A stretch of DNA of 5,684 nucleotides, taken from Hyphomicrobiales bacterium (GTDB taxonomy: Bacteria; Pseudomonadota; Alphaproteobacteria; Rhizobiales; Afifellaceae). The notes below the pieces were generated by a model that saw only the letters and a list, made by a program, of their open reading frames with translations, searched no databases and had not been told where the DNA came from. Shown here in pieces: positions 1,862 to 5,007 of this stretch. The stretch spans positions 1-5,684 of the forward strand of contig JACCSN010000634.1 in NCBI GenBank assembly GCA_013812985.1, written 5' to 3'. The first letter of the stretch is position 1. Each line of letters opens with the position of its first letter. A program made the translations under genes and the position numbers.

Positions 1862-3559
1862 ATGCCTGAAGCATATTTCCGAGCGCTGCAAGAGGGCGCG
1901 GAACGCACGCCTGACCGCCTCTTCTTCCGACTCCACGGGGTAGATGCCGGCGTTTTCACCTTCGCTCGGATGCTGCAGTCGATCGAAGCGGGCGCGGCGA
2001 GCCTTGCCGCCCGACACGTCGAGCCAGGAGATATCGTCCTCATCTTCGCGCAGCACAGCCTCGGCATGCTGCAAGCGTTCTTCGGGGCTCAGCGGCTGCT
2101 GGCTGTTCCCGCCTTCCTGCCGCCGCCAACGAGCCGCCAGCCCCTCAGCGGGTGGGTGGAAGGTCATCGCGCCCTCATCGCTCGCATCGATCCGGCTCTC
2201 ATCGTGTGCGAAGACCGGTTCTTGCCCCATATCCGCGAACTCGGCGATGTCGAGACGGTCACCACGTCCGATCTCGAAGCGTTCAGCGGCGACCGCGGCG
2301 CGCTCCCGACCCTGCAAGCCGAGCCCGGCCGCATCGCTTTTCTGCAGCATTCCTCCGGCACGACGGGCCTCAAGAAGGGGGTGACGGTCACCTACGGTCA
2401 GCTGGCCGCGCAGCTCCGGGGCTATTCCCGCGCGCTCGGGATCGATCCGGAGCAGGATTGCATCGTCTCCTGGCTCCCGCTCTATCACGACATGGGGTTG
2501 ATCGCCGCGACCTTGTTGCCGTTCAGGCTCGGAGTGCCGGTCGATATTATCGAAACCTTCGAATGGTTGGCGCAGCCGGCGCGCTACATTGACCTCCTGA
2601 GGGCGCGCCCGCGCTCGTTCTCCTGGTTGCCGAACTTCGCCCTGACTTTCCTGGCGCAGCGCGTCGACCCGCCTCCGCCCGAAGCCCTGGCTCATGTACG
2701 CGCGATCATCAACTGCTCGGAGCCATGCAAGGCCGACGCCATGAACGCTTTCATCGAGCGCTTTTCGCCTGCTGGCCTGCCGTCGGATGCGGTGCAAGTC
2801 TGCTATGCGATGGCCGAGTATGTCTTTGCCGTGACCCAGACGGAGACGGGCAAAGCGCCGCACGTGCTTTCGGTCAAGTCCGACCCGCTGGAGGCGCGCC
2901 AGGAGGTCGAACTGGCCGACGGCGAATCGCGGGACCGCCAGCAGCGATTCGTCTCCGTCGGCCGGCCCATCCAGGATACGGAGATCCGCATCGGCGACGC
3001 CGAAGCATCGGTGGAAAATCGTGTGGGCGAGATCCGAGTGAGGGGCTCGTCGGCCTGCAGCGGCTATTACGCCAATCCCGAAATGACCCAGAATAAATTC
3101 AAGGACGGCTGGTATCACACGGGTGACCTCGGCTTCGTTCACAACGGCGAGCTGTACGTCACGGGCCGGTCCGATGACCTCATCATCATCCGGGGCCGGA
3201 ACATCTATGCGCACGATCTGGAGGCACTTGTTAGCGAGGTCGAGAACGTAAAACGCGGCCGAACCGTGGCGTTCGGCATCTTCGACGACGTTCTCGGCAC
3301 GGAGAAACTGATTATCGCGGCCGAGCTCAACCATCCGAACCTCCCCCTACCCGCCTCTCGGCTCATCCGCAGTCGCGTTCTGGAGGTCTATGGCGTATCA
3401 CCGGCCGATATTGTCGTGACCGGGCCGGACACACTTATCAAGACGACCAGCGGGAAAATGTCCCGTTCGGAAAATCAAAAGCGGTATGTCGCCGGCACGC
3501 TGGAGCGCTGGGACGCCTCCGGCAGGGAGACCAACGATGAACGTGCGCGAAGCGGTTGA
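1862..3559 (+). CDS. Acyl-AMP ligase (AMP-binding enzyme, FAAL-like)
   Basis: This 565-residue enzyme of the ANL adenylating superfamily should activate a carboxylic acid with ATP to acyl-AMP in the cytoplasm. The core motifs appear in order. The phosphate-binding loop SSGTTGLKKG is at 164-173, PLYHDMGL covers about 206-213, and the A5-type motif YAMAE is at 315-319. YHTGDLG is at 418-424 with the ribose-binding Asp422, GRSDDL is at 435-440 at the hinge, and IKTTSGKMSR has the catalytic Lys532. PLYHDMGL, an AE-ending A5 motif and the length match fatty-acyl-AMP ligases, which pass the acyl group to a carrier protein rather than to CoA. An acyl carrier protein gene overlaps its 3' end by 23 bases, which supports that role. 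The start at 1862 is chosen for its ribosome binding site and because MPEAYFRALQEGAERTPDR begins the usual family N-terminus. The frame stays open upstream to an ATG at 1739. A CoA ligase of unusual type is the main alternative, and the acyl substrate is unknown. Confidence 0.88.
   Translation: MPEAYFRALQEGAERTPDRLFFRLHGVDAGVFTFARMLQSIEAGAASLAARHVEPGDIVLIFAQHSLGMLQAFFGAQRLLAVPAFLPPPTSRQPLSGWVEGHRALIARIDPALIVCEDRFLPHIRELGDVETVTTSDLEAFSGDRGALPTLQAEPGRIAFLQHSSGTTGLKKGVTVTYGQLAAQLRGYSRALGIDPEQDCIVSWLPLYHDMGLIAATLLPFRLGVPVDIIETFEWLAQPARYIDLLRARPRSFSWLPNFALTFLAQRVDPPPPEALAHVRAIINCSEPCKADAMNAFIERFSPAGLPSDAVQVCYAMAEYVFAVTQTETGKAPHVLSVKSDPLEARQEVELADGESRDRQQRFVSVGRPIQDTEIRIGDAEASVENRVGEIRVRGSSACSGYYANPEMTQNKFKDGWYHTGDLGFVHNGELYVTGRSDDLIIIRGRNIYAHDLEALVSEVENVKRGRTVAFGIFDDVLGTEKLIIAAELNHPNLPLPASRLIRSRVLEVYGVSPADIVVTGPDTLIKTTSGKMSRSENQKRYVAGTLERWDASGRETNDERARSG
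3524..3529 (+). promoter_or_regulatory. Ribosome binding site of the acyl carrier protein
   Basis: AGGGAG sits inside the end of the ligase gene, 7 bases before the ATG at 3537. It selects this start over the in-frame ATG at 3486, which would add 17 residues encoded within the ligase reading frame and lacks such a site. Confidence 0.65.
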
Positions 3560-3773
3560 AGATGCCATGCGGCAGGTTTTCCCCAGCTTCACCGGCCCTG
3601 TCCCGAACGAGCTCAGCGCCGCCGATGTCCCCGGCTGGGATTCCTTTGCGCATGTCCGGCTCATGTTCGAGATCGAGAGCCGGCTGGGCTGCGAGATTGA
3701 CGTGACGCAAACCTATGAGTTCCAGGATGTGGGCGAGCTGATGACTCACCTTGCGGGGCTGAAGCATGGCTAA
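3537..3773 (+). CDS. Stand-alone acyl carrier protein
   Basis: The 78-residue acidic protein has the size and shape of a single carrier domain. VPGWDSFAHVRLMFEIESRLG (31-51) aligns with the start of helix II of acyl carrier proteins. Ser36 of the DSF motif is the expected phosphopantetheine attachment site; most family members have DSL. The helix after it and the downstream EFQDVGELMTHL are also typical. Once converted to the holo form by a phosphopantetheinyl transferase encoded elsewhere, it should carry an acyl thioester in the cytoplasm. Its gene overlaps the ligase by 23 bases and the next gene by 8 bases, so the three proteins are probably made together. The ligase is the natural loading partner and the WcbI-like protein a candidate consumer. 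Both partnerships are inferred from gene order. A general fatty-acid-synthesis AcpP is unlikely given the divergent sequence and the context. Confidence 0.87.
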   Translation: MNVREAVEDAMRQVFPSFTGPVPNELSAADVPGWDSFAHVRLMFEIESRLGCEIDVTQTYEFQDVGELMTHLAGLKHG

Positions 3774-5007
3774 GCCGCTCATCATTTTCGACGGAAACTG
3801 CCAGGCCCAGCACCTGGCCGCGATCTTCGCGGGCAGCGGCCTCGCGGATACGAGGCACGTCGGCAAGAATTTTGGATTCGTCCCGGCTTACAATGGCGTC
3901 GGTTGCCGGATCATCGAGCCCGAAGCGGTGCTTCCTCTCGTGGAGGCTGCGCGGGCCAACGGGCAGAAAATCATCCAGGTCTCCCAGAGTTCGCCCTTCC
4001 AGCAGAAATTTGCCGGGCCGGTCATCGATCATGTCGACCACCGCGCCTTCGTCCCAGAGTTCCGCTTCTTCTCAATGGCGCCAAAGCAGTTCGAGGAGTT
4101 TTTCAAAATCAAGGCGCCGTCCATTCAGCGGCTCTTTGACATGGATTTGAAGAACGGAGCCATCGCTCAAAAAAAATCAGGATTCGGCGTGGATGTAGCC
4201 GGCTACATAGCGGAGAATGTGAAGAAACGGTCTTTGTTTCATTATGTAAATCATCCTAACGGAAGCATCATTTCGCTGCTGTTGAGGGGCTTAGGCGAAC
4301 AGCTGAATGGGTGTGTTGACATTTCGCTGCTTAGTCGGACAGCTGAGGAGATTCAAGAGAAAGAGGGGTTGAATTTTACTAGCAGCCATCCGGTCCGATC
4401 CGAAGTCCGTAAAGAGCTGAACCTGTCCTGGGGAACATCCTACGATGTCTATAGTCGAATGATGCGATCTTTGCGGAGCAAAGACTGGCATGGATTGTTG
4501 GCTAGCCGAGATCTCTATGAGGGCTATTTTTCTGAAGACACTCAGTTTTGGGAGGCGATGGCGCAGTCACTTCGAAATGCCTCCAAAGATGTTGAGGATA
4601 CCTTCTTCGCCTTCGAGCGGCTCCTCCAACTTTCGCCAGGCTACAGCGTATACTGGACGTGGTATTTCGATTTCCTGCTGAAGCAGCGCCAGCGCGACAC
4701 GGCCCTTTCTGTCTACCAACGCGCGCACGAGTTCTTTGGGGACTCAAACAGCTTTAATGTGATTGCATCACAGGTGGAGAGTCGGTTGGGCAATCTGGAA
4801 AAAGCCGAAACTCACGCGTGGCGCTACTACAATGATAGCGGCAAGAACATGCGTGCTGCGTTTCCGCTCATGTCTATTCTTGCACGGCGGCAACGGGGCG
4901 ACGATCTTAGCCGGATCTATCAGGCCCACATGAACGAGCCGGAGTTCAAGCGCGACCAGTTGGAAGCCTTCATGGCAAAACTGCGTCTAAAAGGCTTTGC
5001 CTGCTGA
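3766..5007 (+). CDS. WcbI-like putative polysaccharide acyltransferase with TPR-like C-terminus
   Basis: The 413-residue protein opens with IIFDGNCQAQHLA, containing the GNCQ signature (10-13, Cys12) of the WcbI domain. Bacterial members are tied to capsule or exopolysaccharide synthesis and are thought to be CoA-binding acetyltransferases. HYVNHPN at 159-165 (His163) is a second conserved-looking motif. The WcbI-like part covers about residues 1-220. From about 278 to 405 the sequence is a series of amphipathic helix pairs, for example DTFFAFERLLQLSPGY and DTALSVYQRAHEFFGD, resembling TPR repeats, which usually mediate protein contacts. No signal peptide is present, so it is cytoplasmic. The start ATG overlaps the carrier-protein stop in ATGGCTAA, pointing to translational coupling. 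Bases 4141-4560 are only about 48% G+C by hand count, against 65% or more in the gene's first part and in upstream genes. The WcbI family call is fairly firm; the acyl donor and acceptor are unknown. Confidence 0.78.
   Translation: MAKPLIIFDGNCQAQHLAAIFAGSGLADTRHVGKNFGFVPAYNGVGCRIIEPEAVLPLVEAARANGQKIIQVSQSSPFQQKFAGPVIDHVDHRAFVPEFRFFSMAPKQFEEFFKIKAPSIQRLFDMDLKNGAIAQKKSGFGVDVAGYIAENVKKRSLFHYVNHPNGSIISLLLRGLGEQLNGCVDISLLSRTAEEIQEKEGLNFTSSHPVRSEVRKELNLSWGTSYDVYSRMMRSLRSKDWHGLLASRDLYEGYFSEDTQFWEAMAQSLRNASKDVEDTFFAFERLLQLSPGYSVYWTWYFDFLLKQRQRDTALSVYQRAHEFFGDSNSFNVIASQVESRLGNLEKAETHAWRYYNDSGKNMRAAFPLMSILARRQRGDDLSRIYQAHMNEPEFKRDQLEAFMAKLRLKGFAC

What the first reader, a model, noticed from the sequence alone, without database searches (positions are those of the whole stretch)
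1862..5007. Overlapping acyl-AMP ligase, carrier protein and WcbI-type transferase: a possible dedicated acyl-transfer module
Seen: three consecutive genes overlap by 23 and 8 bases. Known: FAAL-type ligases load carrier proteins without CoA, while WcbI proteins are thought to use CoA in capsule acylation. Inference: the WcbI-like enzyme here may take its acyl group from the dedicated carrier protein, giving a CoA-independent route for acylating a glycan or lipid. I know of no described pathway with exactly this trio.
Basis: partly seen in the sequence, partly recalled or inferred. Interest (0 to 1): 0.7.

Follow-up and report, generated by a model that had tools for sequence, protein, structure and literature searches.

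The report
Acyl-transfer gene cassette shared with prophages
Three overlapping bacterial genes look like a small assembly line that loads a fatty acid onto its own carrier protein and passes it to a capsule-type enzyme, and the same trio sits inside a bacterial virus genome, where it may let the virus redecorate its host's surface.

Summary
The trio recurs. The same order, with 0- and 1-bp gaps, lies in an Ensifer-type prophage (L003) between tail and endolysin genes, near a weak KpsM-like match. In a second phage record (L004) FkbH replaces FAAL; ACP and WcbI/TPR stay. Four of 14 other homologues share their contig length with a close FAAL.
A constant ACP plus WcbI/TPR with a swapped loader is the best evidence that WcbI/TPR draws acyl groups from the ACP. 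A surface glycan as acceptor, and a role in lysogenic conversion, are inferred. No biochemistry was possible; whether the window itself is prophage DNA is unknown. My paper searches turned up no description of the trio.

The parts
1862..3559 (+). Fatty acyl-AMP ligase (FAAL), P0001, 565 aa
   Evidence: Pfam AMP-binding 144.9 bits; best NCBIfam match is the FAAL model PRK09192 at 2.8e-93, below its curated cut-off; best PDB match by sequence is E. coli FAAL 3pbk, 1.6e-60; W204, M211, F259 match the CoA-blocking W224, M231, F279 of EcFAAL (alignment read with PMC8460268 section 5)
3537..3773 (+). Stand-alone acyl carrier protein, P0002, 78 aa, presumed phosphopantetheine site S36 in GWDSFAHV
   Evidence: PF00550 20.7 bits, just under the 20.8 cut-off; no NCBIfam match; GWDS invariant in the three ACPs of window, L003 and L004
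3766..5007 (+). WcbI-type domain (about 1-240) fused to TPR-like repeats (about 223-413), P0003, 413 aa; proposed acyltransferase with C12 and H163 as active-site pair
5084..5684 (+). Sulfotransferase-like gene, truncated by contig end; possible further tailoring step (membership in the unit not shown)
   Evidence: PF00685 22.4 bits, cut-off 22; 76 bp after the WcbI stop; I did not search the neighbours of L003 and L004 for this family as a whole
1741..1861 (.). Divergent intergenic gap between the esterase and the FAAL; likely place of the promoter
   Evidence: position only; the sigma-70 scan of 1600-5684 found 0 sites, mean 0.9 in shuffles

Best explanation
A mobile, CoA-independent acyl-transfer cassette. 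FAAL activates a free carboxylic acid with ATP and loads it on the phosphopantetheine of the dedicated ACP; the WcbI-type domain accepts the acyl group from acyl-ACP, probably through C12 (transient thioester) with H163, and passes it to a hydroxyl or amino group of a surface glycan or glycolipid precursor; the TPR part docks the ACP or the acceptor or exporter complex. Phage records carry the same cassette (FAAL version in L003) or one with another loader (FkbH in L004) beside tail and lysis genes, most likely to alter the surface polysaccharide of the lysogen. Shown by sequence or model: the three genes, FAAL CoA-blocking residues, WcbI fold with the Cys/His pair, recurrence in L003, loader swap in L004, prophage location of L003. 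Inferred: acyl transfer, ACP as donor, glycan as acceptor, role in lysogeny.
For: Trio in the same order and spacing (0 and 1 bp) in L003. That record is a prophage with terminase, portal, head protease, tape measure, distal tail, tail fibre, endolysin and integrase; its FAAL is 545/546 identical to an Ensifer protein on a 991-kb contig. L004: FkbH (TIGR01686 176.2 bits over cut-off 146.65) - ACP - MaoC/SDR - WcbI/TPR, then phage lysis and tail genes. 4 of 14 other WcbI/TPR homologues share an exact longest-contig length, number of contigs and sources with one of the 119 other FAALs listed; paired identities of six FAAL/WcbI pairs correlate (r 0.90, reached by 10 of 720 permutations). C12 and H163 are invariant and match WcbI Cys14/His201, which hold the CoA thiol end. 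WcbI was reported to bind CoA but to show no acetyltransferase activity, with an unidentified partner proposed (PMC4104973). KpsM-like permease near the L003 trio (78.3 bits, cut-off 300).
Against: No biochemical proof. WcbI binds CoA in the crystal, so the domain can use CoA. Loss of the CoA 3'-phosphate contact (Arg294 lies past the aligned range 3-273) is suggestive only. 10 of the 14 homologues could not be paired with a listed FAAL; their contigs were out of reach. Two genome-contig scans found no relative, so the cassette is rare or missed by the patterns. The window shows no phage gene among the proteins searched. The KpsM match is far below its cut-off and Pfam gives none. The ACP and WcbI/TPR proteins of L003 have no Pfam match of their own; they are recognised through their likeness to the window's. 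Sequence similarity to WcbI itself is weak (E 0.16).
Confidence: 0.55

Rival explanations
1. The WcbI-type protein acts with acetyl-CoA (as proposed for WcbI), and the FAAL-ACP pair feeds a different transferase or synthase; the genes sit together because all decorate the same polymer.
For: WcbI crystal structures hold CoA (PMC4104973); the window contig ends inside the next gene, so a further acyltransferase could lie beyond it.
Against: In L003 no other acyltransferase was found among the proteins searched: the trio is followed by a methyltransferase, a KpsM-like permease and then phage genes; not every small reading frame there was searched. ACP stays with WcbI/TPR when the loader changes (L004).
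Confidence: 0.2
2. The unit makes a small acylated metabolite or lipid: WcbI/TPR is a thioesterase or ester synthase releasing the acyl group from ACP to water or a soluble acceptor.
Confidence: 0.15
3. Chance neighbourhood: FAAL-ACP and WcbI/TPR are unrelated functions thrown together by mobile elements in a few genomes.
For: IS66 scraps at 1-552; GC falls from 0.637 in FAAL to 0.536 in WcbI/TPR; 10 of 14 homologues without a listed FAAL partner.
Against: Gene overlaps, same order in L003, four contig-length coincidences and correlated divergence.
Confidence: 0.1

Closest known systems
WcbI, Burkholderia capsule protein (PDB 4bqn/4bqo, PF18588)
   Different: 11% identity; TPR repeats replace the C-terminal part that carries Arg294; paired with its own ACP and ligase, whereas the WcbI paper does not contain the words 'acyl carrier'
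Stand-alone FAAL plus ACP of natural-product clusters (e.g. JamA/JamB, PMC11837247, passages)
   Same: FAAL with cognate ACP encoded alongside; loading without CoA
   Different: No PKS or NRPS found here; downstream enzyme is WcbI-type
Dlt system (DltA ligase, DltC carrier, DltB/DltD transfer) - recalled, not tested
   Same: Works alike: adenylating ligase, stand-alone carrier, transfer to a cell-surface polymer
   Different: Amino acid rather than fatty acid, membrane MBOAT transferase (recalled); no MBOAT among the five window proteins searched
Rhizobial NodF/NodA acyl transfer to chitin oligomers - recalled
   Same: Acyl group taken from a dedicated ACP to a glycan
   Different: Acyl-ACP comes from fatty-acid synthesis, transferase fold differs (recalled)
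Prophage O-antigen modification genes (gtr, oac type - recalled; PMC11436027 and PMC4413052 seen as listing and start of abstract only)
   Same: Accessory genes carried by temperate phages that change surface polysaccharide
   Different: Those use sugar or acetyl donors (recalled); here a ligase-carrier-transferase set travels with the phage

Membership tests
Fatty acyl-AMP ligases (FAAL) | AMP-binding fold related to FAALs rather than FACLs | tested here: met
   Best NCBIfam model is FAAL PRK09192; among the top eight are also MbtM, PRK05850, FadD32_Coryne, PRK12476 and FadD32, while PRK07768 (named CoA ligase) is second and an NRPS/PKS model third; all below their curated cut-offs. Best PDB matches: 3pbk, a FAAL, and 7r7e-g, named polyketide synthase
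Fatty acyl-AMP ligases (FAAL) | Bulky residues W224, M231, F279 that plug the CoA pocket, and the FAAL-specific helix (EcFAAL numbering) | tested here: met
   W204, M211, F259 and an ungapped T232-Q238 stretch in the alignment; the three bulky residues invariant in the 16 sequences of A4, two of which are nearly identical; feature list from PMC8460268 section 5. That T232-Q238 is a helix was not tested
Fatty acyl-AMP ligases (FAAL) | Makes acyl-ACP and rejects CoA | not testable with these tools
   needs an enzyme assay
Acyl carrier proteins (PF00550) | Profile match and phosphopantetheine serine | tested here: inconclusive
   20.7 bits against a cut-off of 20.8; no NCBIfam match; the L003 ACP has no Pfam or NCBIfam match, the L004 ACP matches PRK00982 at 27.5 bits, cut-off 66; serine S36 in GWDS conserved in 3 of 3
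WcbI family (PF18588) | Profile match over the curated cut-off | tested here: met
   33.6 bits, cut-off 29.2, but only profile positions 139-200 of 205; the L004 relative reaches 24.5 and the L003 relative none
WcbI family (PF18588) | WcbI fold with Cys14 and His201 | tested here: met
WcbI family (PF18588) | Contacts to the CoA head: Arg294 (3'-phosphate), Arg167 (adenine) | tested here: inconclusive
   Arg294 beyond the structurally aligned range; no conserved Arg by eye near the Arg167 position, register uncertain
Prophage accessory (moron) cassette, L003 | Between phage structural and lysis genes of a record with integrase | tested here: met
Prophage accessory (moron) cassette, L004 | Between phage structural and lysis genes of a record with integrase | tested here: inconclusive
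   lysis and tail genes on one side; the record, 17.5 kb, starts inside the FkbH gene; no integrase or PF04860 portal found in it
Prophage accessory (moron) cassette, window | Phage genes flanking the trio | tested here: inconclusive
   no phage structural gene among the window proteins searched; 5.7 kb is too short
Dlt system | MBOAT transferase DltB next to ligase and carrier | tested here: inconclusive
   none among the five window proteins searched, but the contig is cut at 5684

The most novel reading that the evidence does not exclude
WcbI-type proteins are carrier-protein-dependent acyltransferases, and the missing partner of WcbI is an acyl carrier protein or its equivalent; temperate phages of rhizobia move loader-ACP-WcbI cassettes, with exchangeable loaders (FAAL, FkbH), as a complete acylation kit that rewrites the host's surface polysaccharide against superinfection, while their tail fibres carry GDSL esterases that remove such groups.
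Probability: 0.3. Interest if true: 0.82.

Novelty: new variant of a known kind. Interest (0 to 1): 0.62.

Why it matters
WcbI has a solved structure but no demonstrated activity, and its authors proposed an unknown partner (PMC4104973). An ACP kept next to WcbI-type proteins gives a testable partner and a donor. If prophages carry complete carrier-protein acylation kits, lysogenic conversion is not limited to the single-gene sugar or acetyl transferases I recall, and FAALs have a role outside PKS/NRPS and mycobacterial lipids.

Tried and rejected
No genome is held for the window. Two genome-contig scans with WcbI/TPR alignments found no relative, so conservation across named genomes could not be surveyed. 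tblastn of WcbI/TPR proteins against plasmids gave no match or, at a loose limit with the first 240 residues, 8 records at E 0.6-3 with unrelated genes; against phages no match. FAAL hits in plasmids were 29-34% identical in the rows listed (30 of 1566 records, 12 of 1802); the two opened have NRPS/PKS or unrelated neighbours and no WcbI/TPR. A single-sequence FAAL scan of viral contigs found nothing; the alignment scan gave 12 loci, of which only L005 (the L003 record) has WcbI/TPR within the stretch held.

I considered that the FAAL fusions of L006 (unknown N-terminal domain - ACP - FAAL) and L010 (possible GDSL domain - FAAL) carry a WcbI relative: profile comparison gave no support, GDSL in L010 only E 0.054. 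They are leads, not evidence.
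Full report
What is there. I take the window to be a whole 5684-base contig; no genome is held for it. Three genes on the + strand overlap as reported: FAAL 1862-3559, ACP 3537-3773, WcbI-type 3766-5007, overlaps 23 and 8 bp. An ATG upstream of 1862 is in frame (1739), but 1862 fits the starts of relatives. Around them lie IS66 scraps at 1-552, a divergent esterase gene (835-1740, minus; BD-FAE 104.9 bits) and a sulfotransferase-like gene from 5084 cut by the contig end.

The ligase. Pfam gives AMP-binding. The best NCBIfam model is a FAAL model, PRK09192; the second is named CoA ligase and the third NRPS/PKS, then come fatty acid-ACP and fatty acyl-AMP ligases; all are below their curated cut-offs. 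E. coli FAAL 3pbk is the closest solved sequence. PMC8460268 (outline, section 5 and passages seen) states that FAALs block the CoA pocket with W224, M231, F279 and a FAAL-specific helix T252-R258. In the alignment, where chain index plus one fits the paper's numbers at W224, P226, M231 and F279, these fall on W204, M211, F259 and T232-Q238 of P0001 without a gap. The three bulky residues are invariant in the 16 sequences of A4. Rejection of CoA is therefore expected but not shown.

The carrier. P0002 is 78 aa with S36 in GWDSFAHV; its Pfam score is 0.1 bit under the cut-off and NCBIfam gives nothing. It aligns with the ACPs of L003 (52%) and L004 (36%), GWDS being invariant. Of those two, the L003 one has no family match and the L004 one a sub-threshold ACP match.

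Relatives. One search lists 14 WcbI/TPR homologues besides the window's own. Four of them (P0008, P0009, P0014, P0017) carry the same longest-contig length (47542, 6583, 183425, 10545), contig count and sources as FAALs P0025, P0023, P0036, P0048 among the 119 other FAALs listed (of 7865 found); the other 10 have no such partner in that list. That these pairs lie on one contig is inferred; the contigs could not be fetched, and gene order on them is unknown. With the window and L003 they make six pairs whose identities correlate (r 0.90; 10 of 720 permutations as high); the pairs were chosen by the coincidence itself and one close pair weighs heavily.

Phage records. A viral-contig scan with the WcbI/TPR alignment found two loci, L003 and L004 (the same two). 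L003: tape measure, distal tail protein, a tail fibre (3191-5374), a fibre-like protein (5400-7991, phrog_13362 of unknown function, which also matches the tail fibre of L004), FAAL (8098 or 8104-9744), ACP 9745-9981, WcbI/TPR 9983-11245, methyltransferase, KpsM-like permease on the other strand (78.3 bits, curated cut-off 300), endolysin. The rest of the record holds terminase, portal, head protease, replication initiation and an integrase. Its FAAL is 545/546 identical to P0058, named by its source as AMP-binding protein of unclassified Ensifer. L004: FkbH domain (176.2 bits, cut-off 146.65), ACP, MaoC dehydratase plus short-chain reductase, WcbI/TPR, then a lysis protein (endolysin or chitinase type), tail fibres and tape measure on the other strand; no integrase was found in this 17.5-kb record. 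Its WcbI/TPR protein is 97% identical to P0016 of Agrobacterium tumefaciens. L004 begins inside the FkbH gene, so an additional ligase upstream is possible. The cassettes are poorer in GC than the phage genes measured around them: 0.49-0.55 against 0.57-0.62 in L003, 0.49 against 0.555-0.595 in L004. The fibre-like protein of L003 and the tail fibre of L004 contain a GDSL esterase domain (32.2 bits, just under the 32.9 cut-off; and 46.4 bits).

Reading. The common core of the three loci read is ACP plus WcbI/TPR; the loader differs. That is what one expects if the WcbI/TPR protein works on what hangs on the ACP. FAAL would supply a fatty acid in the window and L003; FkbH with MaoC/SDR would build a short acid in L004 (FkbH chemistry, from 3-carbon units, is recalled). 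The Cys/His pair suggests a transferase with a covalent step. A capsule-type fold, and a possible capsule-type permease near the trio in L003, make a surface glycan the likeliest acceptor. In prophages, an accessory cassette between tail and lysis genes that alters the surface is a familiar pattern of lysogenic conversion (recalled; PMC11436027 seen in listing and start of abstract only).

Limits. No assay, no complex model, no survey of genomes: both genome scans found nothing and the genome search could not be centred. The viral collection is biased to phage records, so two loci do not show that the cassette is mainly phage-borne; no phage gene was found among the window proteins searched. 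Paper searches covered open PMC papers only; by titles and starts of abstracts they returned no description of this trio.

Verdict. It is a new variant of a known kind: ligase-carrier-transferase acylation, as in Dlt (recalled), with a WcbI-type transferase and a mobile, phage-carried form.

Noticed in passing
window 1-552: Remains of an IS66 transposase in two frames (PF03050 68.2 bits at 3-422, weak PF13817 at 271-552): a decayed insertion element at the edge of the contig.
   Followed up: partly
window 835-1740, minus strand: Esterase of the BD-FAE/Abhydrolase_3 type (104.9 bits) divergent from the FAAL, 121 bp apart; could remove acyl groups from the same polymer.
   Followed up: partly
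window 5084-5684: Sulfotransferase-like gene cut by the contig end (22.4 bits, cut-off 22), suggesting sulfation as well as acylation of the product.
   Followed up: partly
window 4126-4485: GC falls to 0.48 (GC3 0.55) in this third of the WcbI-type gene against 0.64 in the FAAL; possible mosaic gene.
   Followed up: no
L006 4421-7369: One 982-aa reading frame in a record with portal and integrase fuses an unknown N-terminal domain with a GTC motif, an ACP (17.0 bits, below cut-off) and a FAAL-like ligase, followed by a FkbM methyltransferase. No detectable similarity to WcbI.
   Followed up: partly
L010 9202-11337: FAAL-like ligase fused to a possible GDSL-like N-terminal domain (E 0.054) among glycosyltransferase-like, sugar dehydrogenase-like and aminotransferase-like genes (named by eye) of a viral contig.
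   Followed up: partly
L003 5400-7991; L004 5984-8785: Fibre-like proteins next to the cassettes in both phage records carry a GDSL esterase domain (PF13472, 32.2 bits just under the cut-off, and 46.4 bits): the phage may remove the kind of group that its cassette adds.
   Followed up: partly
PHROGs phrog_36676: A phage family of unknown function matches the ligases of the window and L006, so phage-coded ligases of this kind exist in PHROGs without a name.
   Followed up: no
BFVD A0A2H4UTY7: A Bodo saltans virus protein named WcbI domain-containing matches the P0003 model (E 6.2e-04): WcbI-type domains also occur in giant viruses.
   Followed up: no
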